35,155 nt of DNA from Deltaproteobacteria bacterium (GTDB lineage: Bacteria > Desulfobacterota > Syntrophobacteria > Syntrophobacterales > Syntrophobacteraceae). Shown here one piece after another: positions 1-35,155 of this stretch (position 1 is the first letter of the stretch; each line of letters opens with the position of its first letter). The DNA lies in assembly GCA_021793275.1 (NCBI GenBank), contig JAJYTC010000029.1:1-35155 (forward strand), read 5' to 3'. Position numbers and translations under genes: made by a program. The notes under the pieces are model-generated. The model made no database searches and was not told the origin of the DNA. It saw nothing but the letters and a program-made list of their open reading frames with translations.

Positions 1-46
1 GCCGCTCCTACGAAAACCCGCTTATTCGCAATTCTCGGACAGCCTC

Positions 47-1178
<1,132 letters not shown>

Positions 1179-1190
1179 GTTCTTCGTTTT

Positions 1191-2444: not shown

Positions 2445-2855
2445 CGAGATTGCCCCTGGTTAAGTTCGCGGATTTATGTACATATTAATAAAAAGATCAG
2501 TGGGTTCAAGGAAATAATGTATTTGTGAATGTATTTTCGTGCAGCCCGCATAAGCCAAATAATACACTTACCCAGGCGCCAAGCGTTCCCACCGCACTGT
2601 AAGATCGGCTATTTGGCAGAAACGCAGCCTTAGATTGAAGAGGGATATAAGCTCCAGACCCCACCCATAGAACAACACAATGGGCCCCGGGGTCGGTTTG
2701 TGTTGGGGTTCGCTTTGGCTCACTCCAACCTACCGGACTACATCATGCCCCGGCAAAATTGGTGTATCAAAGATGGAACTTGCCCGGATTTGTATTATTG
2801 TAAAATAGAATGTGCTGAAGCGAAGTAGCGACCCCTTTTCAGAAAGGAGTGGTGC
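2445..2855. other. Intergenic region between divergent mlaA-like and msrAB genes
   Basis: No gene is supported here. It must contain the promoters of both flanking divergent genes, but I could not pick a convincing pair of boxes. One imperfect stem-loop is visible: GACCCC (2657-2662) pairs with GGGGTC (2689-2694), and CCCAT (2664-2668) with ATGGG (2680-2684), with a C-rich bulge. It has no T-tract, so it is not a standard terminator. Confidence 0.5.
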
Positions 2856-3941: not shown

Positions 3942-3948
3942 AGCGGAT

Positions 3949-4728: not shown

Positions 4729-5109
4729 TTGCACAACCTCCGCTATGGGAAAAGGAAATCCCACCCAAGATACCCAGTTGCGATCAAGATCGATGTTGCT
4801 GGAGGGCCTACAGCGCGCGATCCCGCCGCCGGCGAGACTGCGCTCCCCCTCCCCCACGGTAAGGGGCGTAGTTTATCCCCGCCCGAACTTATGCGCAACT
4901 CGGTATGAGTCAAATTTTACGTATTGTGGATAAAACGCCGGAAAAGACGAATTCCACAACATCCGCCAAATGGGTGGGAAGCTAACAGGAACAATTCTAC
5001 CACAAATGGGGCGCCAAATACTATCGATGATGCGGCGATCACAAATGAAGCATTGACAGGGCGCAGCGGCCTGAATCGGTTTGTGCGGTACCTGACTCGA
5101 TTCGCTCCA
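4729..5109. other. Intergenic region upstream of the TauE-like permease and downstream of glcF-type gene
   Basis: I find no gene here; the small open frames have no recognisable features and poor ribosome sites. The part next to 4728 (minus strand) should hold the permease promoter. Nothing resembling a T-tailed hairpin was seen behind the glcF-like stop at 5110. Confidence 0.4.
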
Positions 5110-6411: not shown

Positions 6412-7790
6412 CCTCCAATGATTTTGCCGGGGTTGAGGATGTTATTGGGATCGAGCGCCGCCTTTATCCGGCGCGAGTACAAAATTGCGGGGCGACCGGT
6501 TTCGTTTTGGAGGTATTTGGATTTGGCCGTTCCGATCCCGTGCTCGCCGGAAAGTGTGCCTCCGTATTCGAGAGCTTTTTCGAAAATAGCGTCAATCGCC
6601 TTTTCCACTCTTCCCCATGCTTCTTTGTCACGGCGGTCGCTAAGGATGGTCGGGTGCAGATTTCCATCTCCGGCATGACCGAAAGTGCCGATCAGCAGGT
6701 CGTATTTGCGGCCGATCTCCTCGATCGAGCGTATCATGGCGGGCACTTTGCTGCGAGGGACCGTGGCGTCTTCGAGCACCGTGGTGGGCCTTATCCGAGA
6801 GAGGGCCGAAAGCGCCGCACGGCGCCCCTCCCACACCTTGTCACGCTCGGCGCCGTCGCGGGCGACTTGAACCCGCATTACGCCCATCTTCCTGCAGATC
6901 GCCTCGACCCTTGCGGCTTCCTCCTCGACCTGGGCGGGATGGCCGTCGACTTCGATCAGCAGCAGCGCAGCGGCCTCCACGGGCAGTCCCGCGCGGCTGA
7001 AATCCTCGACCGCCCGGATGGTGAAATTGTCCAGAAATTCGAGAGTAACCGGGACGATCTTATCGGCAATTATTGCCGAGACCGTTTCGGATGCAGCGGA
7101 CACATCGGAGAAAACCGCCATCATCGCCTTTTTGGCTGCGGGCATGGGTATGAGTTTGAGCGTAATGCGGCTGAAAATCCCCAAGGTGCCCTCGGAGCCT
7201 ACGAGGAGGCCGCCCAGATTGTAGCCGGTTACACATTTGACCGTTCGCGCCCCGGTTTTTACCGTCTCGCCGTTGGCATCGAAAAATTCGAGTCCCATGA
7301 CATAGTCGCGCGTAACTCCATAGCGCAGCCCGCGTAATCCTCCGGCATTTTCCGCAACATTTCCCCCCAGTGTCGAGACCGATTGGCTGCCGGGGTCGGG
7401 GGGATAGAAAAGCCCTTTCGATTCGACGACGGAGGCGAATTTGGCCGTCACAACCCCCGGCTGCACGACAGCATAGAGGTCCTGCTCATTGATTTCGAGG
7501 ATTTCATTCAAAGCGTTGGTAACGATTACAACGCCCCCCGGCTTGGGGATGGTCCCTCCGCTCAAATTTGTCCCGGCGCCCCTTACGGTCAGCGGCAGGC
7601 GGTTTTCGTTACAGACCCGCACGGCCGCCCCAAGCGCTTCAGCGGATCGGGGTCTTAGGACAAAGTCGGGAAGCGAAGGCTCCAGGACCGCTGCGTCATA
7701 AGAGTAGGCATGGCGGTCGGTTTCTTCACTGAAGACATTGTCCTTGCCTAAAATTCTTTCGAATTCTTTCAAAAGACCATTAGTGCTCAT
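6408..7790 (-). CDS. FAD-linked 2-hydroxyacid oxidase, D-lactate/glycolate dehydrogenase subunit (GlcD-type)
   Basis: A flavoprotein of about 460 residues in the PCMH/VAO family that oxidises a 2-hydroxyacid (D-lactate, glycolate or similar) to the 2-oxoacid. The FAD_binding_4 domain (about 35-215) shows LTVRGAGTNLSGG, PPDPGSQSVSTLGGNVAENA and LLVGSEGTLGIF. The FAD-oxidase C-terminal domain carries FGHAGDGNLHPT and SGEHGIGTAKSKYL, which hold the conserved metal/substrate histidines. In-frame starts exist at 7805 (TTG), 7796 and 7790. I chose 7790 because GGGA lies about 6 nt upstream of it, while it is too close to the 7796 ATG. It overlaps the iron-sulfur partner downstream and is divergent from the LUD genes. 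Confidence 0.9.
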   Translation of the reverse strand: MSTNGLLKEFERILGKDNVFSEETDRHAYSYDAAVLEPSLPDFVLRPRSAEALGAAVRVCNENRLPLTVRGAGTNLSGGTIPKPGGVVIVTNALNEILEINEQDLYAVVQPGVVTAKFASVVESKGLFYPPDPGSQSVSTLGGNVAENAGGLRGLRYGVTRDYVMGLEFFDANGETVKTGARTVKCVTGYNLGGLLVGSEGTLGIFSRITLKLIPMPAAKKAMMAVFSDVSAASETVSAIIADKIVPVTLEFLDNFTIRAVEDFSRAGLPVEAAALLLIEVDGHPAQVEEEAARVEAICRKMGVMRVQVARDGAERDKVWEGRRAALSALSRIRPTTVLEDATVPRSKVPAMIRSIEEIGRKYDLLIGTFGHAGDGNLHPTILSDRRDKEAWGRVEKAIDAIFEKALEYGGTLSGEHGIGTAKSKYLQNETGRPAILYSRRIKAALDPNNILNPGKIIGG

Positions 7791-7898
7791 CTTCATTCCC
7801 AGCAACCGCAGTAAGCTCTACCATTGCAATCCGGCCAGCAATCGGCAGGCGCATCCAAAGACCCATAGCAAGGCATGATAATAACCGACTTTTGTCAG

Positions 7899-7910
7899 AT
7901 AATCGATTAT
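7899..7910. promoter_or_regulatory. Perfect 12-bp palindrome in the divergent lactate-gene spacer (possible operator)
   Basis: ATAATCGATTAT reads identically on both strands and sits in the 264-bp spacer between the divergent GlcD-type and LUD genes, about 110 bp from the former and 145 bp from the latter. A shared regulator site is a reasonable guess from position and symmetry. AT-rich palindromes of this length can occur by chance, and no regulator gene lies next to it. Confidence 0.3.
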
Positions 7911-7979
7911 AATTGGCGGGTTTAATTCGGCGCAGCGAAACCGCAGCCAAAAAAAAGAAAAAAAATCCACCGCAGAGCG

Positions 7980-8023
7980 CGCAGAGAACGCCGAGAGGAG
8001 ATTTCTCCTCTGTGTTCTCTGCG
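7980..8023. repeat. CGCAGAGAAC-type inverted repeat hairpin
   Basis: CGCAGAGAAC followed by GAGAGGAGA on the left pairs with TCTCCTC and GTTCTCTGCG on the right, leaving only a small internal bulge and a loop of a few T. It is preceded by an A-rich run and a related CGCAGAGCG unit. It looks like a dispersed intergenic repeat element, lies 31 bp upstream of the LUD gene start, and would be transcribed in its leader. Confidence 0.6.
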
Positions 8024-8054
8024 GGGGATTTCAGTCGTCCACGGAGGGTTAAAA

Positions 8055-8612
8055 ATGGTTGAGCAGGAGAGCACAGCAAAATTTGCCGAAAGGGCCAGGT
8101 CCGCCCAGACCGTCGTGGTGGAAGCAAAGGACCTGGCCGCCGTTTTCGAATACGCTGCCGATCTCACCTTGCAACAGGGCGGGCAGAGCATTGCAGCTCC
8201 CGGCATCAAAGGCAAGGAGCTGGCTCATCTATCGAAGTTGTGCCAGGCCAAAAAGATCGAGCTTCTCACCGGGGACCTGAGACAGAAAGCCGACATGATA
8301 AGCACCGGTCTTACCGGCGCCGACTGGGGTATCGCCGAGACCGGCACGCTGGTTGTGGATTCGAAATCCGAGGACATTCGATTAGCCGGCATGCTGTGCG
8401 ACACTCACGTGGCATTCCTTAAGAAGTCGCGGATCGTGCCGGATGCAGGGACGATCGAAAAAGAGCTTTCGCGGATGATGAAGACTTCCCACGGCTACAC
8501 TGCCTTTATCAGCGGCGCGAGCCGAACGGCGGATATCGAAAGGGTGCTCACCATAGGAGTTCACGGTCCGAGGGAACTGCACGTGCTGATCCTCGGGGAG
8601 GACAAGCAATGA
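8055..8612 (+). CDS. lutC: LUD-domain lactate utilization protein, LutC/LldG type
   Basis: A 185-residue protein consisting essentially of one LUD (YkgG/DUF162) domain. Visible segments are GADWGIAETGTLVV (about 95-108) and RTADIERVLTIGVHGP near the C-terminus, the latter typical of LutC/LldG. In Bacillus (LutABC) and Shewanella (LldEFG), these proteins form a non-flavin L-lactate dehydrogenase complex with iron-sulfur partners that oxidises L-lactate to pyruvate. The gene overlaps the start of the next gene by four bases (ATGA), so the two are co-translated. It is divergent from the GlcD/GlcF-type genes. Confidence 0.9.
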   Translation: MVEQESTAKFAERARSAQTVVVEAKDLAAVFEYAADLTLQQGGQSIAAPGIKGKELAHLSKLCQAKKIELLTGDLRQKADMISTGLTGADWGIAETGTLVVDSKSEDIRLAGMLCDTHVAFLKKSRIVPDAGTIEKELSRMMKTSHGYTAFISGASRTADIERVLTIGVHGPRELHVLILGEDKQ

Positions 8613-10762
8613 TAAAGACACCCGGCGACGTAAAGACATATAAAAAGGATTTGAAGCGCGCTCTTTCGAACACATTCCTGGGCGCCACACTGGACGCTTT
8701 TGCAAGCGCTTACCCTGCATCGCGGGCTAACGCGTTTTCGGGAATCGATTTCGAAGCCCTTGCGGCTGAAATAGCAAGGGCCAAAGACGAATCCATCCCC
8801 AATCTCGAGAAGCTTCTCGAAGAATTCACCGTGCAGGCGCAGAAGGCCGGGGCCGTGGTCCATTTTGCCCGCACGGCTTTCGAGGCCAATTCCATCATTG
8901 CTTCGATAGCCGAAGAAAATGGTGTCAGGCGGATCGTCAAGGGTAAATCGATGACCGCCGAAGAGACTTTTTTAAATGATCACCTCGAGCGGTCCGGATA
9001 TGAAGTGACCGAGACCGACCTGGGCGAGTGGATTATCCAGATGCGGGGCGAAGGGCCCTCTCATATGGTAATGCCTGCCATTCATCTGTCGCGCAGGGAG
9101 GTTGCCGAGCTTTTTACGAAAGTAACGGGACAGGCGCAGGACCCCGACGATATCGGCGCAATGGTAAGGGTGGCGAGAAGCGAGCTTCGCCGCAAATTCC
9201 TGGAAGCCGACATGGGAATAAGCGGCGCAAACTTCGCCATAGCGCAAAACGGCGCTATCGGGCTGGTTACAAACGAAGGAAACGGCCGGCTCGTGACAAC
9301 TCTTCCGCGTGTTCACGTCGCGCTGGTGGGCGTCGACAAACTCGTCCCGGATGTCAAATCCGCCATGAGGATACTGACGGCCCTTCCACGCAATGCCACG
9401 GGCCAGCTCATCTCGACCTACGTCACCTGGATTACCGGCGCGGTGGAGTGCAAATCGGCGCCCGGGTCCAGGAAGAGCATGCACATTGTTTTCCTCGACA
9501 ACGGAAGGCTCGCGCTGGCCAAAGACCCGGTATTCTCGCAGGCGCTCAGGTGTATCCGTTGCGGGGCATGCGCAAACGTCTGCCCCATCTACAAACTTGT
9601 TGGCGGGCATAACTACGGCCATGTCTATATTGGCGCCATCGGACTCGTTTTGACCTACTTCTACCACGGACGACAGAACGCGCGGGCGATCGTAAGAAAC
9701 TGCCTCAACTGCCGGGCCTGTAAATCGGTGTGTGCCGCAGGAATCGACCTCCCTCGACTGATAAAGGAAGTCTACGGCGCGATCCTCGAGGTGGAGGGCG
9801 AAAAGCCGGTAAAAAACGTCCTGCTGGAGAAAACGCTTGGAAATCGACGGCTGTTTCACTTCTTGCTGCGAAGCGGTTCGCATTTGCAAGCACCTGTTGC
9901 CGAAGGGCGGTTTCTGCGGCATCTGCCGTTAATTTTCTCCGAGGAACACCAGTTCCGAAGGCTGCCCGCACTAGCAAAAGTCCCGCTCAGGGACAAGTGG
10001 GAAAAGATCAATCCCGTAACTCAAAATCCCCGCTACAAAGTGGCTTTCTTTGGAGGATGCCTGACCGATTTCGTCTACCCCGAGCAGGGGCAGGCCCTTT
10101 TGGACGCATGCAGGGACCTCGGAGTGCGGTTTGAATATCCCATGGAACAGACCTGCTGCGGGCTGCCCGCGCTCATGATGGGAGAAAAGGAAACCGCCAG
10201 ACGTGTTGCCGTTCAAAACATCAAGGCCGTCGATCCGGCGGAGTTCGATTACGTGCTGACGCTGTGCGCCTCCTGCGGCTCACATCTCAAGGAATACGTG
10301 AACCTTCTCTCCGATGAACCGCTCCTTGGCGTGAAGGCCGCTCAATTGAAGGACAAGGTGATCGATTTCAGCTCATTTATGACAAAAGTGCTTAAAATCG
10401 ATCCAAGCCAATTCCTGGCAGGAGGAGGCAAAACGGCCTATCACGCTCCGTGCCACCTCTGCCGCGGGCAGGGAGTGAGAGAAGAGCCGAGGGAGCTTCT
10501 TGCGATCGCCGGTTTAGAATATGTCCAGACCAAAGACGAGGAAGTGTGCTGCGGATTCGGAGGCTCCTTTTCATTGGATTTTCCGGAGATATCGGCCGAG
10601 CTTCTCAAACGGAAACTGGACAATGTGGCGGCTTCGGGCACCGGAGCACTGGTGACCGACTGTCCGGGATGCGTTTTGCAGCTAAAAGGCGGAATGGAGA
10701 ACAGAGGCGGCGCAATCGAAGTCAAACATATAGCCGAGATTGTCGCCGAACGCAGAAAATAG
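8609..10762 (+). CDS. Fused LutB-LutA-type L-lactate dehydrogenase iron-sulfur protein
   Basis: A 717-residue fusion of the LutB and LutA functions, as in Desulfovibrio-type sulfate reducers. Residues about 50-300 are a LUD domain (ISGANFAIAQNGAIGLVTNEGN is the signature). Two [4Fe-4S] motifs follow, CIRCGACANVCP from residue 315 and CLNCRACKSVCAAG from 365. Two CCG domains occupy about 475-715: FFGGCLTDF (Cys484), QTCCGLPAL and LCASCGSHL, then YHAPCHLC, EVCCGFGGSF and DCPGCVLQL. It would oxidise L-lactate to pyruvate with LutC and pass electrons onward through iron-sulfur clusters to a membrane or soluble acceptor not in this window. The start overlaps the LutC stop. Length and order match a complete protein. 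Confidence 0.9.
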   Translation: MIKTPGDVKTYKKDLKRALSNTFLGATLDAFASAYPASRANAFSGIDFEALAAEIARAKDESIPNLEKLLEEFTVQAQKAGAVVHFARTAFEANSIIASIAEENGVRRIVKGKSMTAEETFLNDHLERSGYEVTETDLGEWIIQMRGEGPSHMVMPAIHLSRREVAELFTKVTGQAQDPDDIGAMVRVARSELRRKFLEADMGISGANFAIAQNGAIGLVTNEGNGRLVTTLPRVHVALVGVDKLVPDVKSAMRILTALPRNATGQLISTYVTWITGAVECKSAPGSRKSMHIVFLDNGRLALAKDPVFSQALRCIRCGACANVCPIYKLVGGHNYGHVYIGAIGLVLTYFYHGRQNARAIVRNCLNCRACKSVCAAGIDLPRLIKEVYGAILEVEGEKPVKNVLLEKTLGNRRLFHFLLRSGSHLQAPVAEGRFLRHLPLIFSEEHQFRRLPALAKVPLRDKWEKINPVTQNPRYKVAFFGGCLTDFVYPEQGQALLDACRDLGVRFEYPMEQTCCGLPALMMGEKETARRVAVQNIKAVDPAEFDYVLTLCASCGSHLKEYVNLLSDEPLLGVKAAQLKDKVIDFSSFMTKVLKIDPSQFLAGGGKTAYHAPCHLCRGQGVREEPRELLAIAGLEYVQTKDEEVCCGFGGSFSLDFPEISAELLKRKLDNVAASGTGALVTDCPGCVLQLKGGMENRGGAIEVKHIAEIVAERRK

Positions 10763-25990: not shown

Positions 25991-26278
25991 ATGAAATTCT
26001 GGCGCGTTCCCCTCGATACCGAACAGATCGTCATCACCAGGGGCGTGGTCCACATCATAGAGGACCGGTGCAAGGGGTGCGGCTACTGCATCGACTATTG
26101 CCCCAGAGGCGTTCTTGAAGCTTCCAGCCGGTTCAATAACAAGGGGTATCATCCCCCGGTGGTGAGGCAGCCCGATCTGTGCGTAAATTGTCACTATTGC
26201 GAGGCCATCTGCCCCGACTTTGCCATCTACTCGGTGGAAGCTCCCGCGCAGCCGATTTCCGAGCTTCCGATCAAGTGA
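25991..26278 (+). CDS. korD: 2-oxoacid:ferredoxin oxidoreductase delta subunit (ferredoxin-type)
   Basis: A 95-residue 2[4Fe-4S] protein. The first cluster motif is CKGCGYCIDYCPRGVL (about 24-39) and the second CVNCHYCEAICPDFAIY (about 64-80). It belongs to the delta subunit of 2-oxoacid oxidoreductases, which accepts electrons from the thiamine-diphosphate subunit and hands them to ferredoxin. I took the ATG at 25991, preceded by AAAGGT; an in-frame TTG at 25970 is less likely. It is the first of four kor genes, 8 bp before korA. Confidence 0.9.
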   Translation: MKFWRVPLDTEQIVITRGVVHIIEDRCKGCGYCIDYCPRGVLEASSRFNNKGYHPPVVRQPDLCVNCHYCEAICPDFAIYSVEAPAQPISELPIK

Positions 26279-26286
26279 GTCTTTTT

Positions 26287-27435
26287 ATGGAACCTGCCGT
26301 TCTCACCGGAGAGCATTTTCTCAATGGCGACGTGGCATGCGCCGAAGGAGCGCTGGCCGCCGGATGCCGCTTCTTTGCCGGCTACCCCATAACCCCCGCC
26401 ACCGAGATAGCCGAGCACATGTCCAAGCGGCTACCGCAGGTCGGAGGGGTCTTTATCCAGATGGAAGACGAAATAAGCGCAATGGCGGCAATCCTTGGCG
26501 CCTCCTGCGCGGGGGCGAAAAGTATGACGGCCACCTCGGGTCCCGGTTTCAGTCTTATGATGGAAAACATCGGGCTGGGGATTACGATGGAGACCCCGTG
26601 CGTTTTGGTGAACGTGCAGCGGGCAGGCCCTTCGACGGGACTTCCGACCCTTGGCGCGCAGGGCGACATGATGCAGGCCAGATGGGGTTCACATGGTCAC
26701 TACGAGATCATAGCGCTTGCGCCGGCATCACCCCAGGAGATTTTTTATCAGACCATTACGGCCTTCAACCTGAGCGAAACCTACCGGCTTCCCGTGCTGA
26801 TAATGGCCGACGAGATAGTGGGCCATCTGAGCGAGAGGGTGATCATACCGGATTCGTCAAAAATAAAGCTGCGGTCCCGACCGCGTCCCAAGGGAAGAAA
26901 GGACCGTTTCCTGCCGTATCGGCCGGGCGCGAACGGTGTGGCGCCGATGGCCCACGCCGGTGAGGGCTACATGGTTCACTTTACGGGCCTGACTCATGAC
27001 GAGAAGGGCTATCCGGTAATGACCGCCGAGGCGCAGGCTGAAATGGTCGATCGCATCACGGGAAAAATACGAAAGAACCTCGACAGGATAATTCAGGTGG
27101 AAAGGTATCGGCTCGAAGATGCCGAGGTAGCCCTCATATCTTACGGGATCAGCACGAGGAGCAGCCTAGCTGCGGTTGATGAGGCGCGGGAACAGGGCAT
27201 AAAAGCGGGCCTTCTGAGGCTTTTGACGGTTTGGCCTTTCCCGGAAGATATGGTTAGAGAGCTTGCAAAACGCGTAAAGGGCCTCATCACGGTGGAACTA
27301 AACCTTGGGCAGATTCACCTCGAAGTGCAGAGGTGCGCGGAAGGCAGGGCGCCGGTAGTTCTCGTCGGGCATGCCGGAGGGTCGGTAATCACACCTGAAG
27401 AGATAGTGGAAAAAATTAAAGAACAGGTTGGATAG
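26287..27435 (+). CDS. korA: 2-oxoacid (2-oxoglutarate):ferredoxin oxidoreductase alpha subunit
   Basis: A 382-residue alpha subunit. The N-terminal pyrimidine-binding domain shows GEHFLNGDVACAEGAL, FFAGYPITPATEIAE, QMEDEISAMAAILGAS and KSMTATSGPGFSLM. The middle part has QRAGPSTGLPTLGAQGDM, and the transketolase C-terminal-like domain ends near the stop. With KorB it decarboxylates a 2-oxoacid with CoA to an acyl-CoA and reduced ferredoxin. The four-gene D-A-B-C order and sequence style fit 2-oxoglutarate, but a branched-chain or other 2-oxoacid is possible. The frame extends upstream to 26179 within korD; the ATG at 26287 is the natural start. Confidence 0.9.
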   Translation: MEPAVLTGEHFLNGDVACAEGALAAGCRFFAGYPITPATEIAEHMSKRLPQVGGVFIQMEDEISAMAAILGASCAGAKSMTATSGPGFSLMMENIGLGITMETPCVLVNVQRAGPSTGLPTLGAQGDMMQARWGSHGHYEIIALAPASPQEIFYQTITAFNLSETYRLPVLIMADEIVGHLSERVIIPDSSKIKLRSRPRPKGRKDRFLPYRPGANGVAPMAHAGEGYMVHFTGLTHDEKGYPVMTAEAQAEMVDRITGKIRKNLDRIIQVERYRLEDAEVALISYGISTRSSLAAVDEAREQGIKAGLLRLLTVWPFPEDMVRELAKRVKGLITVELNLGQIHLEVQRCAEGRAPVVLVGHAGGSVITPEEIVEKIKEQVG

Positions 27436-27534
27436 GACGAAAAAAAAGAAAAAAGCAAAAAACAAAAAGCAAAAAAATAAGACAAATAGGACGCATAGGA
27501 CATATAGTTGCCCTGCTCTGGGTCAGGATATTTC
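27436..27534 (+). repeat. Low-complexity A-rich and nonamer-repeat spacer inside the kor operon
   Basis: The korA-korB gap is an A-rich stretch with repeated AAAAAGC-like units, followed by ATAGGACGC, ATAGGACAT and ATAG, a short nonamer array. It is unlike the tight junctions elsewhere in the cluster and has no coding capacity. Confidence 0.6.
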
Positions 27535-28359
27535 ATGAACGGCAGCACATCTTCTCAAAAGCACCCGCTGGACGGCCTGCTTCGAACGGATCGCATACCG
27601 CACATATGGTGCCCGGGATGCGGAATCGGCACTGTCTTTTCCTCGTCTCTTATCGCCATCAGGTCAACGGGGGCTGAGCCGATGAAGACCGCGGTAGTCT
27701 CGGGGATAGGGTGCACAGGAAGAGGCGCGGGCTATGTCAATCTCGATTCCTACCACACCACGCACGGCAGGGCGATTCCGTTTGCCACCGGCATGAAGCT
27801 CGCCAATCCCGAGCTTTCGGTGGTCGTTTTCAGCGGCGACGGGGACCTGTTTGCAATCGGCGGCAATCACTTCATCCACGCGGCAAGGCGCAACATGGAC
27901 CTTACGGTAATCTGCGTAAACAATCTCAATTACGGCATGACGGGAGGACAGGCCGCCGCTACGACCCCTTATCTCGCCAAGACATCGACAACGCCGCTGG
28001 GAAATCCCGAGGCGCCGTTCAACCTGCCGCTTCTGGCATACGCATGCGGCGCCACCTACATCGCGCGCTGGACAATGCTTCATACGCGGGACCTTACCCA
28101 GTCGATAACCGAGGCCCTTACGCGCACGGGTTTTTCCTTCATCGAGGTCCTTGCCCCCTGCCCTACCGGCTACGGCCGCAAAAACAAGCTCAAAGCCAGT
28201 GATTTGCTGAAGGTCTACCAGGAAAAGGCAATAGTGAAAAACGGCGCCAACCCCGCCGAAACGATCCTCGATCTGGAACAGGGAATAACTCTTGGCAAGT
28301 TTGTGGAGTACGACAGGCCGACTTTTGCGCAAAACTACAAGGCAGTGACCAGTGATTAG
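27535..28359 (+). CDS. korB: 2-oxoacid:ferredoxin oxidoreductase beta (ThDP-binding) subunit
   Basis: The 274-residue thiamine-diphosphate subunit. It has IWCPGCGIGTV (cluster/ThDP region, about 23-33), SGIGCTGRGAGYVN, the GDGDLFAIGGNHFIHAARRNMDLTVICVNN ThDP/Mg motif (GDG...N, about 102-131), and YGMTGGQ. These are the standard elements for the site where the 2-oxoacid is decarboxylated. Start: ATG at 27535 with AGGA about seven bases upstream; a TTG at 27508 is less likely. It is followed 13 bp later by korC. Confidence 0.92.
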   Translation: MNGSTSSQKHPLDGLLRTDRIPHIWCPGCGIGTVFSSSLIAIRSTGAEPMKTAVVSGIGCTGRGAGYVNLDSYHTTHGRAIPFATGMKLANPELSVVVFSGDGDLFAIGGNHFIHAARRNMDLTVICVNNLNYGMTGGQAAATTPYLAKTSTTPLGNPEAPFNLPLLAYACGATYIARWTMLHTRDLTQSITEALTRTGFSFIEVLAPCPTGYGRKNKLKASDLLKVYQEKAIVKNGANPAETILDLEQGITLGKFVEYDRPTFAQNYKAVTSD

Positions 28360-28372
28360 CGGATGGTGAGCG

Positions 28373-28942
28373 GTGAGAAAAGAGATCCTTATAACAGGCC
28401 TGGGAGGACAGGGCATCGTGCTTGCGGGCCAGGTGCTCGGCATGGCCGCCTGCCTGGCGGACCACCTCGAGACCAGTTTTACGCAGTCCTACGGTCCCGA
28501 GGCGCGCGGGGGCGCGTGCAGCGCCCAGTTGATAATATCGGACAAGCCGATCCATTACCCTTACGTGCGCGAGGCCGATATCCTTGTATGCATGTCACAG
28601 GGGGGATATGAAAAATATCGCCCCATGCTGAAGGACGAAGGGACACTGATAATCGACCAGGACATGGTGCGATCGGGCGAGGCAGTCCCCGGGGATGTTT
28701 TTTCGGTTCCGGCGACCCGCATGGCCGAGGAACTTGGCAGAAAAATGATGGCCAATATAGTCATGCTCGGCTTTGTCACATCGGTTACGAGCGCCGTTTC
28801 ACTCGAAGGGATGCTGTCCTCTGTTGCCGATTCGGTGCCCAAGGGGACCGAGAAGACAAATATCGCGGCCTTCAACAAAGGCTACGATTTAGGGCAGGCG
28901 ATGCTGAAGGCCAGGATGAAAAAGGCCGCCGCCAGGCATTAA
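28373..28942 (+). CDS. korC: 2-oxoacid:ferredoxin oxidoreductase gamma subunit
   Basis: A 189-residue gamma subunit with the family opening ILITGLGGQGIVLAGQVLGMAA (about 5-26), SYGPEARGGACSAQLI (about 43-58), and the C-terminal part with NIVMLGFVTS. It completes the four-subunit enzyme. Translation starts at GTG 28373, in a GGTGAGCGGTGAG context that itself repeats a heptamer-like unit. The next gene starts 21 bp later, so the hdr genes are very likely co-transcribed with kor. Confidence 0.92.
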   Translation: MRKEILITGLGGQGIVLAGQVLGMAACLADHLETSFTQSYGPEARGGACSAQLIISDKPIHYPYVREADILVCMSQGGYEKYRPMLKDEGTLIIDQDMVRSGEAVPGDVFSVPATRMAEELGRKMMANIVMLGFVTSVTSAVSLEGMLSSVADSVPKGTEKTNIAAFNKGYDLGQAMLKARMKKAAARH

Positions 28943-28963: not shown

Positions 28964-31900
28964 ATGAAAGACCCCAGGGAACGCCTTCAAAAGGTGTGCA
29001 TAATAGGCGCGACGCCCGCCGGAATTGCCGCAGCGAACAAGCTGGGCGAGATGGGGATACCGGTCACACTGATCGACGAGGCTGGCGATCTGAATGAGAA
29101 GCTCTCATGTGAAGCCTGGAGGATGGACTCCGGGGTTCTGTTCAACTACGCCATGCGCCCCGGGCTTCTTAGGATAATGAGAAATCCGAGAGCAAGACTC
29201 GTTCTTCCCGCTTCCGTCAAGTCGATCAAACACACTCCGCAGGGATTTTCGATACGGTACAAAAAGGCGCCCACTTACATAGACAGGGGAAAGTGCACGC
29301 TTTGCGGGCTTTGTTGGCAGGCTTGTCCAGCGATCGGCCCGGACGGTAAAAAGGCGCTAAAATTCGGCGGCAGGCACGCTCTTCCGGGCAGGCCGGTAAT
29401 CGACAAGCGCAAGGCCCCTCTTTGCCAGGCCAATTGCCCGCTCGGGGTAAACGTCCAGGGATACATGGCCCTTACGCGCGCGGGAAAGTATGGTGAAGCG
29501 CTCGAACTGATCAGGAAGGACAACGTTTTACCCGGCATCTGCGGCAGGGTCTGCACCCATCCGTGCGAGGCCGCATGCCGCAGAAACGAAATCGACCAGC
29601 CCCTTGCCATACGCGACGTGAAGCGATTCGTTGCCGACAGCGCGCCGCCTGCGCCCTTCGGGCAGAAAGCGGTAAAGACCCGGGCCGAGAAAATTGCGGT
29701 GGCGGGTTCGGGACCCGCCGGACTGGCTGCGGCATCCGATCTTGCCCGTTCGGGATATCGGGTCACGGTCTTCGAGAAAGAAAAAGCGCCGGGGGGACTT
29801 TTGCGTTACGGGATCGGAGCGCACCGTCTTCCGCGAGCCGTGATCGACCGGGAAATCGATTATCTTCACGGGCTCGGAGTCCAATTCCGCCTCGAAAGCG
29901 AGTATAAACCGCAGGAGGGCTCGGAGTTTTCCGCGGTCATCCTGGCCACAGGGTTATGGGAAGATCGAAAGCTTAACGCCCCCGGAGAAGCACTCGAGGG
30001 CGTTTCGGGATGCGTGTCGTTTCTTTGCGGTGTACACCGGGGACAAATAAAGTCAGTTACGGGGAAAACCGCGGTTATCGGCGACGGCAATTCCGCATTT
30101 GAGGCCGCACGCACCCTGGCGCGCCTTGGCGCGGAAGTTACACTGATCTCCTGGTTTCCCGGGGAGCTTATCCCTGCCGACGAGCGCGAGGTCGAAGAGG
30201 CCGCAAAAGAGGGAATAGCGATAAAGACCAGCCTGAAAGTCGCCGAGTTCGTGGGCGCTGGGGGGAAGCTAAAAGCTATTCGCTTTATTCCTACCGTTCC
30301 CGGTCCGCCTGACGCAAATGGAATCCCCTGGCCCATTGCGGCAGAGGGGGGAAAGCCGGTAGAGATCGAATTCGAACGCGCCGTAGTAGCGATTGGCCAG
30401 ACGGCAAACCCGGCATCTTTCGAAGGTTATGGAGAAGCGTTCACTACGGCTTCCGGGCTGATACAGGTTGGCGAAAACGGTGAGACACGGGAGAAGAAGG
30501 TCTTTGCCGCAGGAGATGCGGCAAGCGGCCCATCGACCGTCGTGTCCGCCATGGCCTCCGGTCGCGCGGCCGCAAAGGCTGTTCACAGGTTGATCAGCGG
30601 GGAAGACCGGGCTTCAGAAGAGGGTGTAGTTTACAGGCGCCGGGAGGTGGACTATCCGGAGATTACCACGGAGATTGCGTCCGTGCCGCGCACAATGATG
30701 TCGGAACGCAATCCCGCTTCGCGCCTGCAACTTTCAACCGAGGTCGAACTCGGACTGAGCGAAGACCAGGCCCGCGCGGAGGCGTCGAGGTGCCTTCAGT
30801 GCGGAGTTTGCTCCGAATGCGGCCAGTGCGTGGAAGCATGTTCGGCAGCCAGGGCAGTTTTGCACGCCGAGGATTGCTCAGATGAGATCGAACATGCGGG
30901 GGTGGTCATTATCACCGATCCTGCATCGGCCCCGAGTATAAAAGGCGAGGACGTTATCCGCGCTTACAGCTCGAAGGCCATCCAGCCGGACGTTTTCGCC
31001 ATGATGCTGCGCGGGTTCGCCGCGGCGGCTGAAACCGCTCTTTTGCTTGGCGAGAGCACTGCACGCCTTAAGGGCGGCGGTATTCTGTTTTCGCCGCCGG
31101 AACCTCAGCTCTCGCCGGAGCTTCGCATCGGGGTTTTCGTATGCCGCTGCAACGATTCGCTCGGCTGGGACCCCGAACTGGACAGGCTGATATCCTATCT
31201 TCCCGAGAATTCACCGGTGGAGCATGCCGAGTCGATTCCTTCGGCCTGCACCCCGGAAGGCGCGGCCTCTATATTGAGGACGATTCGTGAAAAGGGCCTT
31301 ACCCGATTCGTTCTGGCTTCCTGCGTATGCTGCCCGCTGGATCTCATATGCACGGCGTGCACCGACCAACGCAGCAGGCTCAAGGCAGCCATTTTCCAGG
31401 GGACCGGCGTTCCGCGGGCGATGGCTGAAACCTGCAACATCAGGGGTGAGGCGCTTGCCCTTTTAGGGAGCAATCGCTCTCTTGCCATAAGCCGCTTTGA
31501 AGGGCTTTTGCAAAGATCGATCCGGCGCACGGCGGGCCTCAAGTCCCTGCCGACTCCGGCGCGCCAGTACAACTTTACGACCGCAGTGATCGGCGAATCC
31601 GAGGCAGCGCTAAGGAGCGCCCAAACCCTGGGTCAAATGGGCATGGAAGTGTTTTTGTTCGGGGGCCGGGACAGGCCGCTCACTCTCACGCCCGCCTACC
31701 CCAACGTTCATGCATTTCCAGGCTCCAGCGCCCGGTCTCTCAAGGGCACGGTGGGAGACTTTCAAGTAATTGTCAGCATGGAGGACGGCACACACCAGGT
31801 TTTCAGCGCCGGAGCGGTAATACTGGGAGAAAGATCGCGAAAGAACATGGCCTATATGCCTCATCCGGACATGCCGCCCCATGAGTTCGAAAACTCCATG

Positions 31901-32314
31901 CAGGCAAGAGGCCGCCTGGGAATCCCGTTCTTCGTTCCGGGAGCGACCTCCATATCGGGGCTTCTGCTGGCCAGTCCGCCCGGCGTCAATATCTCCGAAC
32001 GACTGAAGGGCACTGCGGCGGGGATTCTCGCAGCGACGGTCATGCCTCGCGGCCCCAGGCAGAACAAGGGATATACGGTTTCAATAGATCGGGACCTTTG
32101 CAGAGGATGCGGCCGTTGCATGAAGGCTTGTCCCTATAAGGCCATCAGCTTTCACGCCAATAATGCTCCGCGATCTGGCTACGCGGTTGTCGACGAAGCC
32201 CTTTGCAAGGGTTGCGGCAACTGCATTTCGATTTGTCCGTCCGGGGCGGCCGACAGTCCCTATCGTGAAAGGCGATTCCTCGAACAGGCCATAGAAGAAA
32301 TAGTCCACAAATGA
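28964..32314 (+). CDS. Large HdrA-like / GltD-like / HdrA-like flavo-iron-sulfur fusion protein
   Basis: 1116 residues from the ATG at 28964. Residues 1-105: HdrA-like Rossmann segment with a degenerate GATPAG loop. About 111-122: CTLCGLCWQACP [4Fe-4S]. About 150-210: the GltD-type N-terminal cluster region (CQANCPLGV, CGRVCTHPCEAACRR). About 245-585: GltD/NfnB-type pyridine-nucleotide-disulfide fold with FAD motif GSGPAG (248-253), second dinucleotide motif GDGNSA (373-378) and VFAAGDAASGPSTVV. About 610-630: CLQCGVCSECGQC. About 720-850: HdrA N-terminal domain (IGVFVCRCND, ASCVCCP). Then a degenerate Rossmann stretch and a C-terminal 2[4Fe-4S] ferredoxin (CRGCGRCMKACP from 1046, CKGCGNCISICP). 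It may link NAD(P)H to the Hdr subunits encoded next. The start of the following gene overlaps its stop. Confidence 0.88.
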   Translation: MKDPRERLQKVCIIGATPAGIAAANKLGEMGIPVTLIDEAGDLNEKLSCEAWRMDSGVLFNYAMRPGLLRIMRNPRARLVLPASVKSIKHTPQGFSIRYKKAPTYIDRGKCTLCGLCWQACPAIGPDGKKALKFGGRHALPGRPVIDKRKAPLCQANCPLGVNVQGYMALTRAGKYGEALELIRKDNVLPGICGRVCTHPCEAACRRNEIDQPLAIRDVKRFVADSAPPAPFGQKAVKTRAEKIAVAGSGPAGLAAASDLARSGYRVTVFEKEKAPGGLLRYGIGAHRLPRAVIDREIDYLHGLGVQFRLESEYKPQEGSEFSAVILATGLWEDRKLNAPGEALEGVSGCVSFLCGVHRGQIKSVTGKTAVIGDGNSAFEAARTLARLGAEVTLISWFPGELIPADEREVEEAAKEGIAIKTSLKVAEFVGAGGKLKAIRFIPTVPGPPDANGIPWPIAAEGGKPVEIEFERAVVAIGQTANPASFEGYGEAFTTASGLIQVGENGETREKKVFAAGDAASGPSTVVSAMASGRAAAKAVHRLISGEDRASEEGVVYRRREVDYPEITTEIASVPRTMMSERNPASRLQLSTEVELGLSEDQARAEASRCLQCGVCSECGQCVEACSAARAVLHAEDCSDEIEHAGVVIITDPASAPSIKGEDVIRAYSSKAIQPDVFAMMLRGFAAAAETALLLGESTARLKGGGILFSPPEPQLSPELRIGVFVCRCNDSLGWDPELDRLISYLPENSPVEHAESIPSACTPEGAASILRTIREKGLTRFVLASCVCCPLDLICTACTDQRSRLKAAIFQGTGVPRAMAETCNIRGEALALLGSNRSLAISRFEGLLQRSIRRTAGLKSLPTPARQYNFTTAVIGESEAALRSAQTLGQMGMEVFLFGGRDRPLTLTPAYPNVHAFPGSSARSLKGTVGDFQVIVSMEDGTHQVFSAGAVILGERSRKNMAYMPHPDMPPHEFENSMQARGRLGIPFFVPGATSISGLLLASPPGVNISERLKGTAAGILAATVMPRGPRQNKGYTVSIDRDLCRGCGRCMKACPYKAISFHANNAPRSGYAVVDEALCKGCGNCISICPSGAADSPYRERRFLEQAIEEIVHK

Positions 32315-33894
32315 ATGACGAACTCAAAATAGTTCTTTTTCTGTGCAACTGGAGCCCGCACGCGGCATACCAGACGCTCCAGGACACTCTTGCGCCGCTG
32401 CCCGTTGAAATCCGCATGATAAGGATTCCGTGCAGCGGGCGAATTACGAAGTCGCTTCTCTTCAAGGCTTTCGAGACGGGCGCCGACGGCGTCGTGCTGC
32501 TCGGCTGCGAAGCAGGCGCCTGCCGTTACGGGATCGGAACTCGAGTCGCCCAGAGAAACATTGGCGACACAAGGGGAATTCTTGACCTGCTGGGTCTTGG
32601 AGAGGAACGGCTCGGTTTTGCCTCCTTCAATCCCGATCAGCACCTGGAACTGCTCGCCTATCTGACTGCATTCAGAAACAAGATCGAAGAGCTTGGCAAA
32701 ACACCCGTCGTTCCTGCAAGCCGAGCGAAAGAGGTTGCCCTCTCCGCCGGGTCCGCAGCCTCGATCAGCGCCGCACACAATGTCTACGTCTGCCAGGACT
32801 GCGGCAAATGTTCATCCGCGTGTCCCGTGGCCCTTTCGGGCAAGGAATTTTCTCCCCGGGCAATCGCCAACGCCGTAGCGACCGGCGATCTCGACTCGCC
32901 TGTTATCCGGGAGGACATCTGGTCATGCCTGACGTGCGGCCTTTGCTATGACCGATGTCCTTCCGCGGTCAGCTTTCCCGAGTTCATAAAGGATATGCGC
33001 TGCGCGACGCCGGCGAATGGAAAGTTCAATGCCCACGAAGGTTTTTTCCATTCACTCATGCGCGCCATGACATCTCCGGGGCTGCCCGTCGAACACTGGA
33101 AGTGGCTTCCTTCCGACATTCAGACGGATACGAACAGTAAAATTCTTTTCTTCGGAGGCTGCGCCCCCTACTTCGACACATTTTTCAAAAATCACCTGGG
33201 CATCAGCACAAGCGACATTCTGGTCGATGCGCTCAGGCTCATGAACTTTTTCGACATTCGTCCGGCGATCCTGCAAAACGAGAGGTGCTGCGGCCACGAT
33301 TTGCTGTGGTCCGGAGACCGCGAGAATTTTATCAAGCTTGCCCGGTTGAACGTCGAGCTGATTTCGGCGATGGGGACCCAAGAGTTGGTTACGGCGTGCC
33401 CGGAGTGTTACCGCGCCTTTTCCCGCGACTATCCCGAAAACGGCATAAAAACGGGGTTCAAGGTAACCCATATTTTCGAGCTGGCCGAAGCCGAGATCGG
33501 CAAGGGCGCTGTCGGATTTACAAAACTCAACAGGAAGATAACCTACCAGGATCCCTGCCGGCTCAGCCGTACACAAGCCGGATGCGAATTGCCGCGGGGC
33601 CTTCTGAAGCGCTTAAAGGTAGCCGATTTCACCGAGATGCGGGACCGGGGGGCTTCTTCGCTTTGCTGTGGAAACTGCGCCTGGACGGGATGCGACAGCT
33701 ATTCCAAGGCCATGCAGGTAAACAGGCTGAGGCAGGCCAGGGAAACCGGCGCCAATCTGCTCGTGACGGCATGTCCGAAATGCCAGATTCATCTCAGGTG
33801 CGCCATGGAAGACCCTTTTCTCGAAAACGAAATCCGCATGGAGATGATCGATTTGACTTCCATTCTGGCCAAAACGATACAGTGGGAAGGATAG
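32311..33894 (+). CDS. MvhD-HdrC-HdrB fusion protein
   Basis: 527 residues combining three Hdr/hydrogenase parts. Residues 1-130 are MvhD/FrhD-like (hydrogenase [2Fe-2S] subunit): LFLCNW with Cys12, IPCSGR with Cys41, and GCEAGAC with Cys66 and Cys71. The usual second Cys of the CNWC motif is Ser. About 161-218 is HdrC, with CQDCGKCSSACP and CLTCGLCYDRCP. About 275-520 is HdrB, with two complete CCG motifs: FFGGC (Cys284), RCCGHD, TACPEC; then YQDPC, LCCGNC, TACPKC. These ligate the paired non-cubane clusters that carry out disulfide-type two-electron chemistry in Hdr. The ATG overlaps the preceding stop, which ties its expression to the large flavoprotein. The acceptor is unknown. Confidence 0.9.
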   Translation: MNDELKIVLFLCNWSPHAAYQTLQDTLAPLPVEIRMIRIPCSGRITKSLLFKAFETGADGVVLLGCEAGACRYGIGTRVAQRNIGDTRGILDLLGLGEERLGFASFNPDQHLELLAYLTAFRNKIEELGKTPVVPASRAKEVALSAGSAASISAAHNVYVCQDCGKCSSACPVALSGKEFSPRAIANAVATGDLDSPVIREDIWSCLTCGLCYDRCPSAVSFPEFIKDMRCATPANGKFNAHEGFFHSLMRAMTSPGLPVEHWKWLPSDIQTDTNSKILFFGGCAPYFDTFFKNHLGISTSDILVDALRLMNFFDIRPAILQNERCCGHDLLWSGDRENFIKLARLNVELISAMGTQELVTACPECYRAFSRDYPENGIKTGFKVTHIFELAEAEIGKGAVGFTKLNRKITYQDPCRLSRTQAGCELPRGLLKRLKVADFTEMRDRGASSLCCGNCAWTGCDSYSKAMQVNRLRQARETGANLLVTACPKCQIHLRCAMEDPFLENEIRMEMIDLTSILAKTIQWEG

Positions 33895-33900
33895 AAGATC

Positions 33901-33985
33901 GGTGAATGGGTGAATCGGTGAGTCGGTGAGTTGACGCATATCCCCCATTCACCCACTCACCCATTCACCCGTTCACCCGTTAACT
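33901..33985. repeat. Inverted tandem octamer array between hdr genes
   Basis: Four plus-sense octamers GGTGAATG, GGTGAATC, GGTGAGTC, GGTGAGTT (33901-33932) face CATTCACC, CACTCACC, CATTCACC, CGTTCACC and a degenerate CGTTAACT (33946-33985). The two arms could pair over about 32 bp around a short loop. It fills the gap between the MvhD-HdrC-HdrB gene and hdrA, with no T-tract at its end. Confidence 0.85.
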
Positions 33986-34003: not shown

Positions 34004-35155
34004 ATGAAGAAATTTTCTACAAACGGTGAAGCTCCGCGAATTGGCGTCTATGTGTGCCATTGCGGGTTGAATATCGCAGGGACGGTGGATTGCCCGAAGG
34101 TGACCTCGGAGGTCGGCAGGCTTGAAAACGTGGTCCATGCGCGAGACATTCAATATGCCTGTTCCGAACCCGGCCAGCAGGCCATAACCAAAGATATCGC
34201 CGAGCTCGGGCTTGACCGCATCGTGATCGCCTCCTGCTCTCCGAGGCTCCATGAACCGACCTTCCGGCAGATGCTCGAACGCGCGGGCTTGAACCCCTAC
34301 CTGCTCGAAATGGCCAACCTGAGGGAGCAGTGCAGTTGGGTGCACATAAACGAGCGTGGCGCCGCAACAGCCAAAGCAACCGACCTGGTGCGCATGGCGG
34401 TGGCCAGGGCCGCCCGGCTGGAGCCGCTCCAGAGCAGAAAAATACCGCTAAACAGGCGAACTCTCGTCATCGGAGGAGGTATCGCCGGCATCCAGGCGGC
34501 GCTTGACCTGGCCGATAACGGCTACGAGGTGGTCCTGGTGGAAAAAAGTCCCTCGATCGGCGGCAACATGGCGCGGCTCGACAAGACCTTCCCCACCATG
34601 GACTGTTCGATCTGAATACTCGGTCCGAAAATGACCGATGCCGGTCGGCATCCAAAAATCAAGCTGTTGACTCTTTCTGAAGTGATCGATGTAAAAGGAT
34701 ATGTCGGCAACTTCGAGGTCAAGATTTTAAAGAAGGCCAGATACGTATCCGAGAAAGAGTGCACCGCCTGCGGCGACTGCGCCAAGGTATGTCCGGTGGT
34801 GCGTGCGGACGAATTCAATTCAGGTCTTTCCTCCAGAAGGGCCGTTTACTCGCCTTTTCCTCAAGCGGTGCCTTCGGCTTACGTGATCAACATCAACGAG
34901 TGCCTCGGCCATAACCCGGTAGTGTGCGCCAAGTGCGCGGAAGTCTGCGAGAAGAAGTGCATCAATTTTCATATGTCCGATGAGGAAGTGGTCGAAAGCG
35001 TGGGAAGCATCGTCGTGGCCACCGGCATCGAGGCCTATGACCCGACCGAACTCGACGAGTACGGCTATACGCGCTATGAGAATGTGCTGAGCAGCCTGGA
35101 ATTCGAACGGCTGGTGAGCGCGGGCGGGCCGACCGGAGGCGAGCTGATCCGGCCC
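34004..35155 (+). CDS. hdrA: Selenocysteine-containing HdrA, FAD iron-sulfur subunit (partial, runs off window)
   Basis: A heterodisulfide reductase A homologue, the bifurcating flavin subunit. The HdrA N-terminal domain (about 10-130) has IGVYVCHCGLNIAGTVD, YACSEPGQ and IASCSPRLHEPTF. The FAD domain begins with VIGGGIAGIQAALDLA (about 153-168) and GGNMARLDKTFPTMDCSI. The next codon is TGA (34613-34615, residue 204), where homologues have Cys (DCSxC-I-L-x-PKM). The same frame then reads ILGPKM, CTACGDCAKVCPV, RPFPQAVP-like YSPFPQAVPSAYVI, CAKCAEVCEKKC and IVVATG without a stop to the window end. I therefore read TGA as selenocysteine. ATG 34004 is chosen over an upstream TTG at 33986. It is the third Hdr gene of the cluster. 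Confidence 0.9.
34637..34652 (+). promoter_or_regulatory. Bacterial SECIS-like hairpin for the HdrA UGA
   Basis: GATGCC, loop GGTC, GGCATC: a perfect six-pair stem with a GGUC apical loop beginning 27 nt after the TGA. Bacterial SECIS elements sit immediately downstream of the recoded UGA and carry a G/GU-rich apical loop; E. coli fdhF also has GGUC in its loop. Position and loop fit, but binding by SelB is not demonstrated. Confidence 0.75.

What the first reader, a model, noticed from the sequence alone, without database searches (positions are those of the whole stretch)
28964..32314. Unusual HdrA-like / GltD-like / HdrA-like domain order in one 1116-residue protein
A NfnB/GltD-type FAD-NAD(P)H module is sandwiched between an HdrA-like N-terminal Rossmann segment and a second HdrA-like part that keeps the HdrA N-terminal iron-sulfur domain and ferredoxin tail. 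The HdrA-like dinucleotide loops look degenerate, so the protein may hold active flavin only in the GltD-like core. It contains many iron-sulfur motifs and could act as a hub between NAD(P)H and the Sec-HdrA.
Basis: partly seen in the sequence, partly recalled or inferred. Interest (0 to 1): 0.72.

Follow-up and report, generated by a model that had tools for sequence, protein, structure and literature searches.

The report
Stripped-down HdrL in a Kor–Hdr cluster
This protein is a shrunken member of a known family that fuses an NAD(P)H-handling enzyme into a heterodisulfide-reductase subunit; it has lost the flavin sites of its two reductase parts and always sits in a conserved seven-gene cluster that seems to link a 2-oxoacid (probably 2-oxoglutarate) enzyme to an electron-splitting machine.

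Summary
Window 28964-32314 (+) encodes 1116 residues: HdrA-like Rossmann plus first ferredoxin motif (9-148), a complete, circularly permuted NfnB/GltD-type module (about 150-640), an HdrA N-terminal Fe-S domain (717-860), a degenerate second Rossmann remnant and a 2[4Fe-4S] tail. Both HdrA flavin sites are gone: bifurcation residues (E356/K409 equivalents) and the Cys/Sec motif are missing in all 46 orthologues compared, whereas the GltD FAD loop and 31 cysteines are kept by all 46. HdrA-GltD fusion itself is known (HdrL, 2009; type III HdrA, 2025). New here: a reduced HdrL subfamily with its own 8-cysteine domain, fixed in a cluster korD-korA-korB-korC - reduced HdrL - MvhD/HdrCD - Sec-HdrA·MvhD. 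It occurs in 44 of 395 sampled genomes of the phylum; gene order was the same in all 34 loci read. The partner Sec-HdrA keeps the bifurcation residues. Related KorDABC sets pair with other Hdr modules in at least four further arrangements. Best reading: NAD(P)H port and Fe-S wire of a Kor-Hdr (con)furcating complex. No biochemistry exists; the AlphaFold model was unusable.

The parts
25991..26278 (+). korD, 2[4Fe-4S] ferredoxin-type subunit of a 2-oxoacid oxidoreductase, 95 aa
   Evidence: Read from sequence; homologue at the same place in L100, L102-L121 and others
26287..27435 (+). korA, alpha subunit of a 2-oxoacid:acceptor oxidoreductase (2-oxoglutarate/KOR type)
   Evidence: Pfam POR_N and PFOR_II; NCBIfam PRK08659 575.9 bits, above its cut-off 411; PDB 1yd7 and 8ys5. 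Start at ATG 26287 chosen by eye; the ORF tool gives an upstream GTG at 26179
27508..28359 (+). korB, thiamine diphosphate subunit
   Evidence: Pfam TPP_enzyme_C; PorB_KorB
28373..28942 (+). korC, gamma subunit
   Evidence: Pfam POR
28964..32314 (+). reduced HdrL: HdrA-like / GltD / HdrA-like fusion, 1116 aa (the finding)
28988..29407 (+). residues 9-148: first HdrA piece, Rossmann start plus first ferredoxin motif C111-C114-C117-C121; flavin loop degenerate
   Evidence: hhalign to HdrA 145-291, probability 99.2; loop counts
29411..30604 (+). residues 150-547: GltD/NfnB core with intact FAD loop (GSGPAG), dinucleotide loop (GDGNSA) and C154, C158, C193, C197, C201, C205
   Evidence: Pfam Fer4_20 and Pyr_redox_2; PDB NfnA, NfnI and dihydropyrimidine dehydrogenase homologues
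30686..30841 (+). residues 575-626: permuted GltD N-terminal segment (C610, C613) followed by a second ferredoxin motif C616-C619-C622-C626
   Evidence: aligns to residues 5-43 of 4ylf_B and 10-51 of 5jca_L; all six cysteines invariant, 46/46
31112..31543 (+). residues 717-860: HdrA N-terminal Fe-S domain with an 8-cysteine variant motif C727, C729, C762, C787, C789, C790, C796, C799 (SCxCCPL..CxxCxDQRxR)
   Evidence: hhalign to the HdrA N-terminal domain; cysteines 46/46; motif not found in the own-genome relatives whose domain could be read
31574..32053 (+). residues 871-1030: degenerate remnant of a second HdrA flavin domain
   Evidence: E356/K409-type motifs absent
32075..32254 (+). residues 1038-1097: C-terminal 2[4Fe-4S] ferredoxin domain
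   Evidence: Pfam Fer4_7/Fer4_10; eight cysteines 46/46
32311..33894 (+). MvhD-HdrC-HdrB(D) fusion, 527 aa, two CCG domains
   Evidence: Pfam FlpD, Fer4, CCG x2; PDB MvhD and HdrC homologues
34004..35155 (+). Sec-HdrA, cut by the end of the contig; in-frame TGA at 34613-34615 (CSI-U-ILGPK); the complete copy in L010 is HdrA fused to MvhD
   Evidence: HdrA2 model 326 bits on the N-terminal part; L010 copy 785 bits to HdrA 5odc_A over its full length
34616..34652 (+). hairpins just behind the TGA, a candidate SECIS
   Evidence: fold -13.5 kcal/mol, z -2.28; tRNA-Sec found in the own genome, 74 bits

Best explanation
Shown by sequence: the protein is a reduced HdrL, i.e. an HdrA-GltD-HdrA fusion whose two HdrA flavin domains have been cut down, leaving one complete FAD/NAD(P)H module (GltD) and cysteines for about seven, perhaps eight, [4Fe-4S] clusters, and it belongs to a fixed cluster with KorDABC, MvhD/HdrCD and a Sec-HdrA that keeps the bifurcation residues. 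Inferred: these products form one complex in which NAD(P)H docks at the GltD FAD of this protein and electrons run over its Fe-S chain to the Sec-HdrA flavin. That flavin splits (or, in reverse, merges) electrons between a low-potential branch serving KorDABC (2-oxoacid / acyl-CoA + CO2) and a high-potential branch through HdrCD to a disulfide. The protein would thus act as the NAD(P)H port and wire, standing in for the second HdrA of the usual HdrA dimer, and not itself bifurcate. Direction is open; I lean slightly to NAD(P)H-driven reductive carboxylation of succinyl-CoA, because most examined genomes that carry the cluster also have a normal 2-oxoglutarate dehydrogenase E1 for oxidation. 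Identity and loss of the HdrA flavin sites: about 0.9. Kor-Hdr coupling: about 0.7. The whole mechanism: 0.5.
For: Domain map. 31 cysteines invariant in 46 orthologues and one more in 44, GltD loops kept, HdrA loops not. E356/K409-type motifs and the CSIC/U motif absent in 46/46 reduced HdrL, but the bifurcation motifs are present in the partner Sec-HdrA copies (one copy misses one motif pattern), and at least one YCSxxCC..K motif is present in every larger or single-HdrA GltD fusion examined that was complete there. Partner is full-length HdrA-MvhD. Same gene order korABC-HdrL-MvhD/HdrCD-Sec-HdrA in 34 loci, including a distant tier only about 33% identical in this protein. Closely related KorDABC also sits with HdrA.MvhD-HdrC-HdrB, with a 660-aa GltD/Fd protein-MvhD-HdrCD, and with upstream or interleaved HdrA, so the Kor-Hdr link was made or rearranged repeatedly. 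SucA above cut-off in 8 of 12 genomes tested. Kor-Hdr interleaving with proposed electron flow to the 2-oxoglutarate enzyme was reported for tubeworm symbionts (PMC6315080, PMC11636981).
Against: No expression, purification or activity data; complex formation is inferred from synteny only. Some KorDABC of the same clade stand without any Hdr gene in the sequence fetched (L168, L171, L172, L185), so coupling is not obligatory for the enzyme. In L181 the GltD protein goes with KorDABC, MvhD and HdrCD and no flavin-bearing HdrA is nearby, which suits a linear chain. SucA is absent in three of the tested cluster carriers (G374, G107, G336), so the directional argument is weak. Nucleotide preference is unclear: the Arg pair usual for NADPH binding is replaced by S-W-F in most orthologues, while the loop is GxGxxA. 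The AlphaFold model (mean pLDDT 40) says nothing.
Confidence: 0.5

Rival explanations
1. Linear, non-bifurcating 2-oxoacid:NAD(P)+ oxidoreductase: KorDABC passes low-potential electrons straight to the GltD FAD of this protein, which reduces NAD(P)+, as in phenylglyoxylate:NAD+ oxidoreductase; the Hdr genes serve as a side branch.
For: The protein directly follows korC in every locus read; L181 has KorDABC with a GltD/Fd protein, MvhD and HdrCD and no flavin-HdrA; NADH-dependent 2-oxoacid oxidoreductases with related alpha, beta and gamma subunits exist (PadG, PadI, PadE models match KorA, KorB, KorC weakly).
Against: A complete Sec-HdrA.MvhD with bifurcation residues is co-conserved in every locus with enough sequence; a linear chain would not need it.
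Confidence: 0.25
2. The protein is a Fe-S scaffold that has lost nucleotide chemistry altogether; electrons only pass through its clusters between KorD, Sec-HdrA and HdrCD.
For: Both HdrA flavin sites are lost; the NADPH-binding Arg pair is lost in most orthologues.
Against: GltD FAD loop and C-terminal flavin motif (AAGD) are conserved in the orthologues, as are GxGN loops at the nucleotide site; a bare scaffold would be expected to lose them.
Confidence: 0.12
3. The same kind of complex, but for another 2-oxoacid (branched-chain, aromatic, 2-oxobutyrate) in amino acid or propionate metabolism; the 2-oxoglutarate label is wrong. (This rival concerns the substrate and can hold together with the best explanation.)
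For: Substrate cannot be read safely from family scores: the dedicated 2-oxoglutarate synthase alpha model PRK09627 scores 391, below its cut-off 579.
Against: The two best solved-structure matches of KorA are a 2-keto acid:ferredoxin oxidoreductase and a 2-oxoglutarate synthase; it is the only alpha subunit of this type in the genome, the others are at most 33% identical.
Confidence: 0.3

Closest known systems
HdrL (heterodisulfide reductase/glutamate synthase fusion) of Desulfobacterium autotrophicum HRM2, PMC2702500
   Same: HdrA and GltD-type sequence fused in one large protein; MvhD encoded nearby; proposed NADH input
   Different: The HdrL-like 1400-1570-aa proteins examined here have two HdrA flavin domains; this protein has lost both HdrA flavin sites and lies in a kor cluster, which that paper does not mention (the word oxoglutarate does not occur)
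Type III HdrA of methane-metabolizing archaea, PMC12054007
   Same: GltD inserted into the inserted ferredoxin domain of an HdrA flavin domain
   Different: Type III keeps a TrxR-type flavin domain; here there are two HdrA parts and both lack it. Nine archaeal sequences were described there
Canonical HdrA of HdrABC-MvhAGD (PDB 5odc)
   Same: N-terminal Fe-S domain, Rossmann start, inserted and C-terminal ferredoxin motifs
   Different: No E356/K409 equivalents, no YCSxxCC..K motif, GltD inserted, extra four cysteines in the N-terminal-type domain
NfnB/NfnL, GltD, dihydropyrimidine dehydrogenase A and relatives (PDB 5jca, 9n5u, 4ylf)
   Same: Complete FAD/NAD(P)H module with its clusters
   Different: Circularly permuted and embedded in HdrA sequence
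Flx-Hdr-KorABCD clusters of tubeworm symbionts, PMC6315080 and PMC11636981
   Same: Idea and synteny of Hdr bifurcation feeding a four-subunit 2-oxoglutarate oxidoreductase
   Different: NADH enters through FlxABCD there, through a GltD domain here; different phylum and gene order

Membership tests
HdrL (HdrA/GltD fusion protein) | HdrA-type and GltD-type sequence in one chain | tested here: met
HdrL (HdrA/GltD fusion protein) | MvhD encoded nearby | tested here: met
   next gene starts with an MvhD domain
HdrL (HdrA/GltD fusion protein) | Complete HdrA flavin domains as in the 1400-1570-aa relatives | tested here: not met
   deleted segments, motifs absent in 46/46; hence 'reduced HdrL', a variant, not a plain member
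Type III HdrA | GltD inserted in the inserted ferredoxin domain | tested here: met
   HdrA match ends at HdrA 291 and GltD starts near residue 150; single-HdrA relative L047 breaks at HdrA 293/302
Type III HdrA | TrxR-type flavin domain retained | tested here: not met
Electron-bifurcating HdrA | E356 and K409 equivalents, flavin loop GxGxxG | tested here: not met
Electron-bifurcating HdrA (partner gene, Sec-HdrA) | Full-length HdrA with E356 and K409 equivalents | tested here: met
   L010 copy 785 bits to 5odc_A with both residues aligned; motifs in nearly all copies. The window's own copy is cut before K409
GltD/NfnB FAD-NAD(P)H module | Fer4_20 plus Pyr_redox_2, FAD loop, dinucleotide loop | tested here: met
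GltD/NfnB FAD-NAD(P)H module | Binds FAD and oxidises or reduces NAD(P)(H) | not testable with these tools
   needs protein
2-oxoglutarate:acceptor oxidoreductase (KorDABC) | Four subunits of the KOR type | tested here: met
2-oxoglutarate:acceptor oxidoreductase (KorDABC) | Acts on 2-oxoglutarate | not testable with these tools
   substrate assay needed

The most novel reading that the evidence does not exclude
A previously undescribed class of flavin-based (con)furcating enzyme, widespread in this phylum, in which a 2-oxoacid oxidoreductase is the built-in low-potential partner of an Hdr complex, and NAD(P)H enters through an HdrA-derived subunit that has given up its own bifurcating flavins and replaces one HdrA of the dimer.
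Probability: 0.35. Interest if true: 0.78.

Novelty: new variant of a known kind. Interest (0 to 1): 0.55.

Why it matters
If true, making or oxidising 2-oxoglutarate in many sulfate-reducing and syntrophic bacteria is energetically tied to NAD(P)H and a disulfide inside one complex, which would change energy budgets of these organisms and give a natural example of CO2 fixation by reductive carboxylation driven by electron bifurcation. The reduced HdrL is also a clean case of a bifurcating subunit that lost its flavins while keeping its wires.

Tried and rejected
A GltD tree separates the main clade (100/100) but leaves the distant tier unresolved; the tree of the HdrA N-terminal domain groups all 46 reduced HdrL in one split, SH-like support 0.96. 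Idea that both HdrA parts might hold flavin: rejected on deleted segments and missing motifs. Idea of a MAG assembly artefact: rejected, same ORF and synteny in many independent genomes, including single-contig ones. Idea that DsrC is the obligatory disulfide partner: weakened, G336 carries the cluster without a DsrC match. Literature on this kor-HdrL cluster: none found in the open-access library searched; the Syntrophobacter fumaroxidans proteome paper was searched for Hdr, 2-oxoglutarate and heterodisulfide and the passages shown do not mention it. Subscription papers, notably the 2021 review of HdrA(BC) modules by Appel et al., could not be read. Distribution outside the phylum was hardly tested (one genome-contig scan with close-relative patterns). 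One motif pattern was written with the wrong spacing; one search gives the corrected count, 45 of 46 (the alignment shows all eight cysteines in 46 of 46).
Full report
What was checked. The ORF at 28964-32314 is real and 1116 residues long. Pfam and NCBIfam see a GltD/NfnB-type module (Fer4_20 150-227, Pyr_redox_2 243-533; best NCBIfam model PRK12771, 409 bits, below its cut-off of 516) and a C-terminal 2[4Fe-4S] domain; HdrA models match only in pieces. No curated family covers the whole protein.

Anatomy. Profile-profile alignment of 24 orthologues to 22 full-length Sec-HdrA sequences places residues 9-148 on HdrA 145-291 (start of the flavin domain and first ferredoxin motif) and 717-935 on HdrA 3-235 (N-terminal Fe-S domain and start of a second flavin domain); the tail 1038-1097 is the C-terminal ferredoxin. 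Between 150 and about 640 lies the GltD module. Its last part (575-613, ending in RCLQC) corresponds to the N-terminus of ordinary GltD/NfnB chains, so the module is circularly permuted; by homology the two missing GltD cluster cysteines are supplied from there (C610, C613). A second ferredoxin motif (C616, C619, C622, C626) follows.

What has been lost. In canonical HdrA the bifurcating flavin depends on E356 and K409 (PMC12054007). The HdrA segments that hold them are missing here, and the corresponding motifs, the YCSxxCC..K motif and the CSIC/U motif are absent in all 46 reduced HdrL sequences. The Rossmann loops are degenerate (first: GATPAG/GANPAG or unrelated; second: GESEAA-like), whereas the GltD loop is GSGPA or GGGPA in all 46 and the flavin motif A/G-G-D persists.

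What has been kept or gained. 31 cysteines are invariant in 46 of 46 aligned orthologues, and C193 in 44. They suffice for about seven [4Fe-4S] clusters by homology: two in the inserted ferredoxin, two in GltD, one in the N-terminal HdrA-type domain, two in the tail. That N-terminal-type domain carries four extra invariant cysteines (SCxCCPL..CxxCxDQRxR instead of SCSPRLHEP), possibly an eighth cluster; this motif was not seen in the own-genome relatives whose domain could be read. A tree of that domain puts all 46 reduced HdrL in one split (0.96).

Relation to other HdrA forms in the same and related genomes. There are single HdrA with GltD inserted exactly between HdrA 293 and 302 (L047, L049), and 1400-1570-residue proteins with two HdrA flavin domains and GltD in the first (L045, L046, L050-L054). 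The present protein has the layout of the latter with about 380 residues of flavin domain removed; descent from such a protein is the simplest reading, not proven. One orthologue (L038, genome G018) has a GltD core that groups with the large HdrL proteins, a domain swap or a chimera.

Neighbourhood. Upstream are korD (25991-26278), korA, korB, korC, a complete four-subunit 2-oxoacid oxidoreductase. Downstream are an MvhD-HdrC-HdrD fusion with two CCG domains and a selenocysteine HdrA cut by the contig end, whose intact relatives are HdrA-MvhD fusions, 785 bits to PDB 5odc_A over the full HdrA length with E356 and K409 equivalents. The in-frame TGA is supported by conservation of CSI-U-ILGPK in every copy found, a hairpin behind it and a tRNA-Sec gene.

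Distribution. All 25 same-genus and same-family genomes searched have a match of E 9e-270 or better. In an even sample of the phylum 44 of 395 genomes match the HdrA-like C-terminal part at E<=1e-25: 29 with at least 49% identity and 15 at about 29-35%. In 34 loci read in detail korA, korB, korC, this gene, MvhD/HdrCD and Sec-HdrA follow one another in the same order, and korD precedes them wherever it was looked for and the contig reached, also in the distant tier (in that tier MvhD and HdrCD are separate reading frames). Named relatives are Syntrophobacteraceae and other deltaproteobacterial MAGs.

The Kor-Hdr link is wider than this protein. KorA of the same clade (55-72% identical) was followed into genomes lacking a reduced HdrL match. 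It sits there with HdrA.MvhD-HdrC-HdrB (L175, L177 and, by BLAST only, L173, L178, L180), with a 660-residue GltD/ferredoxin protein plus MvhD and HdrCD (L181), behind an HdrA gene with korB and korC fused (L174, L176, L179, L182, L183), or interleaved with HdrA and MvhD (L184); some sets stand alone. Repeated pairing in different arrangements is the best evidence that Kor and Hdr exchange electrons directly. The same idea was published for Flx-Hdr/Kor clusters in tubeworm symbionts (PMC6315080, PMC11636981).

Mechanism. Best reading (0.5): NAD(P)H port and Fe-S wire of a Kor-Hdr complex in which the Sec-HdrA flavin splits or merges electrons between KorDABC and a disulfide at HdrCD. Shown: composition, co-conservation, retained and lost sites. 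Inferred: complex formation, electron path, direction. SucA (8 of 12 genomes above cut-off), citrate synthase (10 of 12) and DsrC (11 of 12) were surveyed; presence of SucA in most carriers mildly favours a reductive role for Kor, but three carriers lack it. The main rival is a linear 2-oxoacid:NAD(P)+ enzyme.

Known or new. The fusion principle is known: HdrL (PMC2702500, 2009) and type III HdrA (PMC12054007, 2025). I found no description of the reduced form or of this gene cluster in the library available, which lacks most subscription papers. I file it as a new variant of a known kind.

Limits. No structure (mean pLDDT 40); cluster counts are by homology; genome sample limited to one phylum; substrate and nucleotide specificity unknown.

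Noticed in passing
L038:124-3483 (G018:C378): Orthologue whose GltD core groups with the ~1500-aa HdrL proteins while the rest is like the finding: GltD domain swap or MAG chimera.
   Followed up: partly
L014:10001-13217: Orthologue split into two overlapping ORFs (755 and 383 aa), probably a frameshift or assembly error.
   Followed up: no
L181:8363-14738: KorDABC with a 660-aa GltD/ferredoxin protein, MvhD and HdrCD and no flavin-bearing HdrA in the fetched stretch: possibly a simpler Kor-NAD(P)H-Hdr system.
   Followed up: partly
L174, L176, L179, L182, L183 (about 1-6500): KorB and KorC fused in one ORF, with an HdrA gene directly upstream of korD.
   Followed up: partly
window 5110-10762: FAD-linked oxidase plus CCG/Fer4 protein on the minus strand and a LUD-CCG protein on the plus strand: looks like a lactate or glycolate oxidase locus.
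   Followed up: no
window 2856-3941: Fused methionine sulfoxide reductase A-B (PMSR + SelR) in an anaerobe.
   Followed up: no
window 33900-33980: Short near-repeats (ggtgaatgggtgaatcggtgag, cccattcacccactcaccc) in the gap between the MvhD/HdrCD gene and the Sec-HdrA gene, seen by eye.
   Followed up: no
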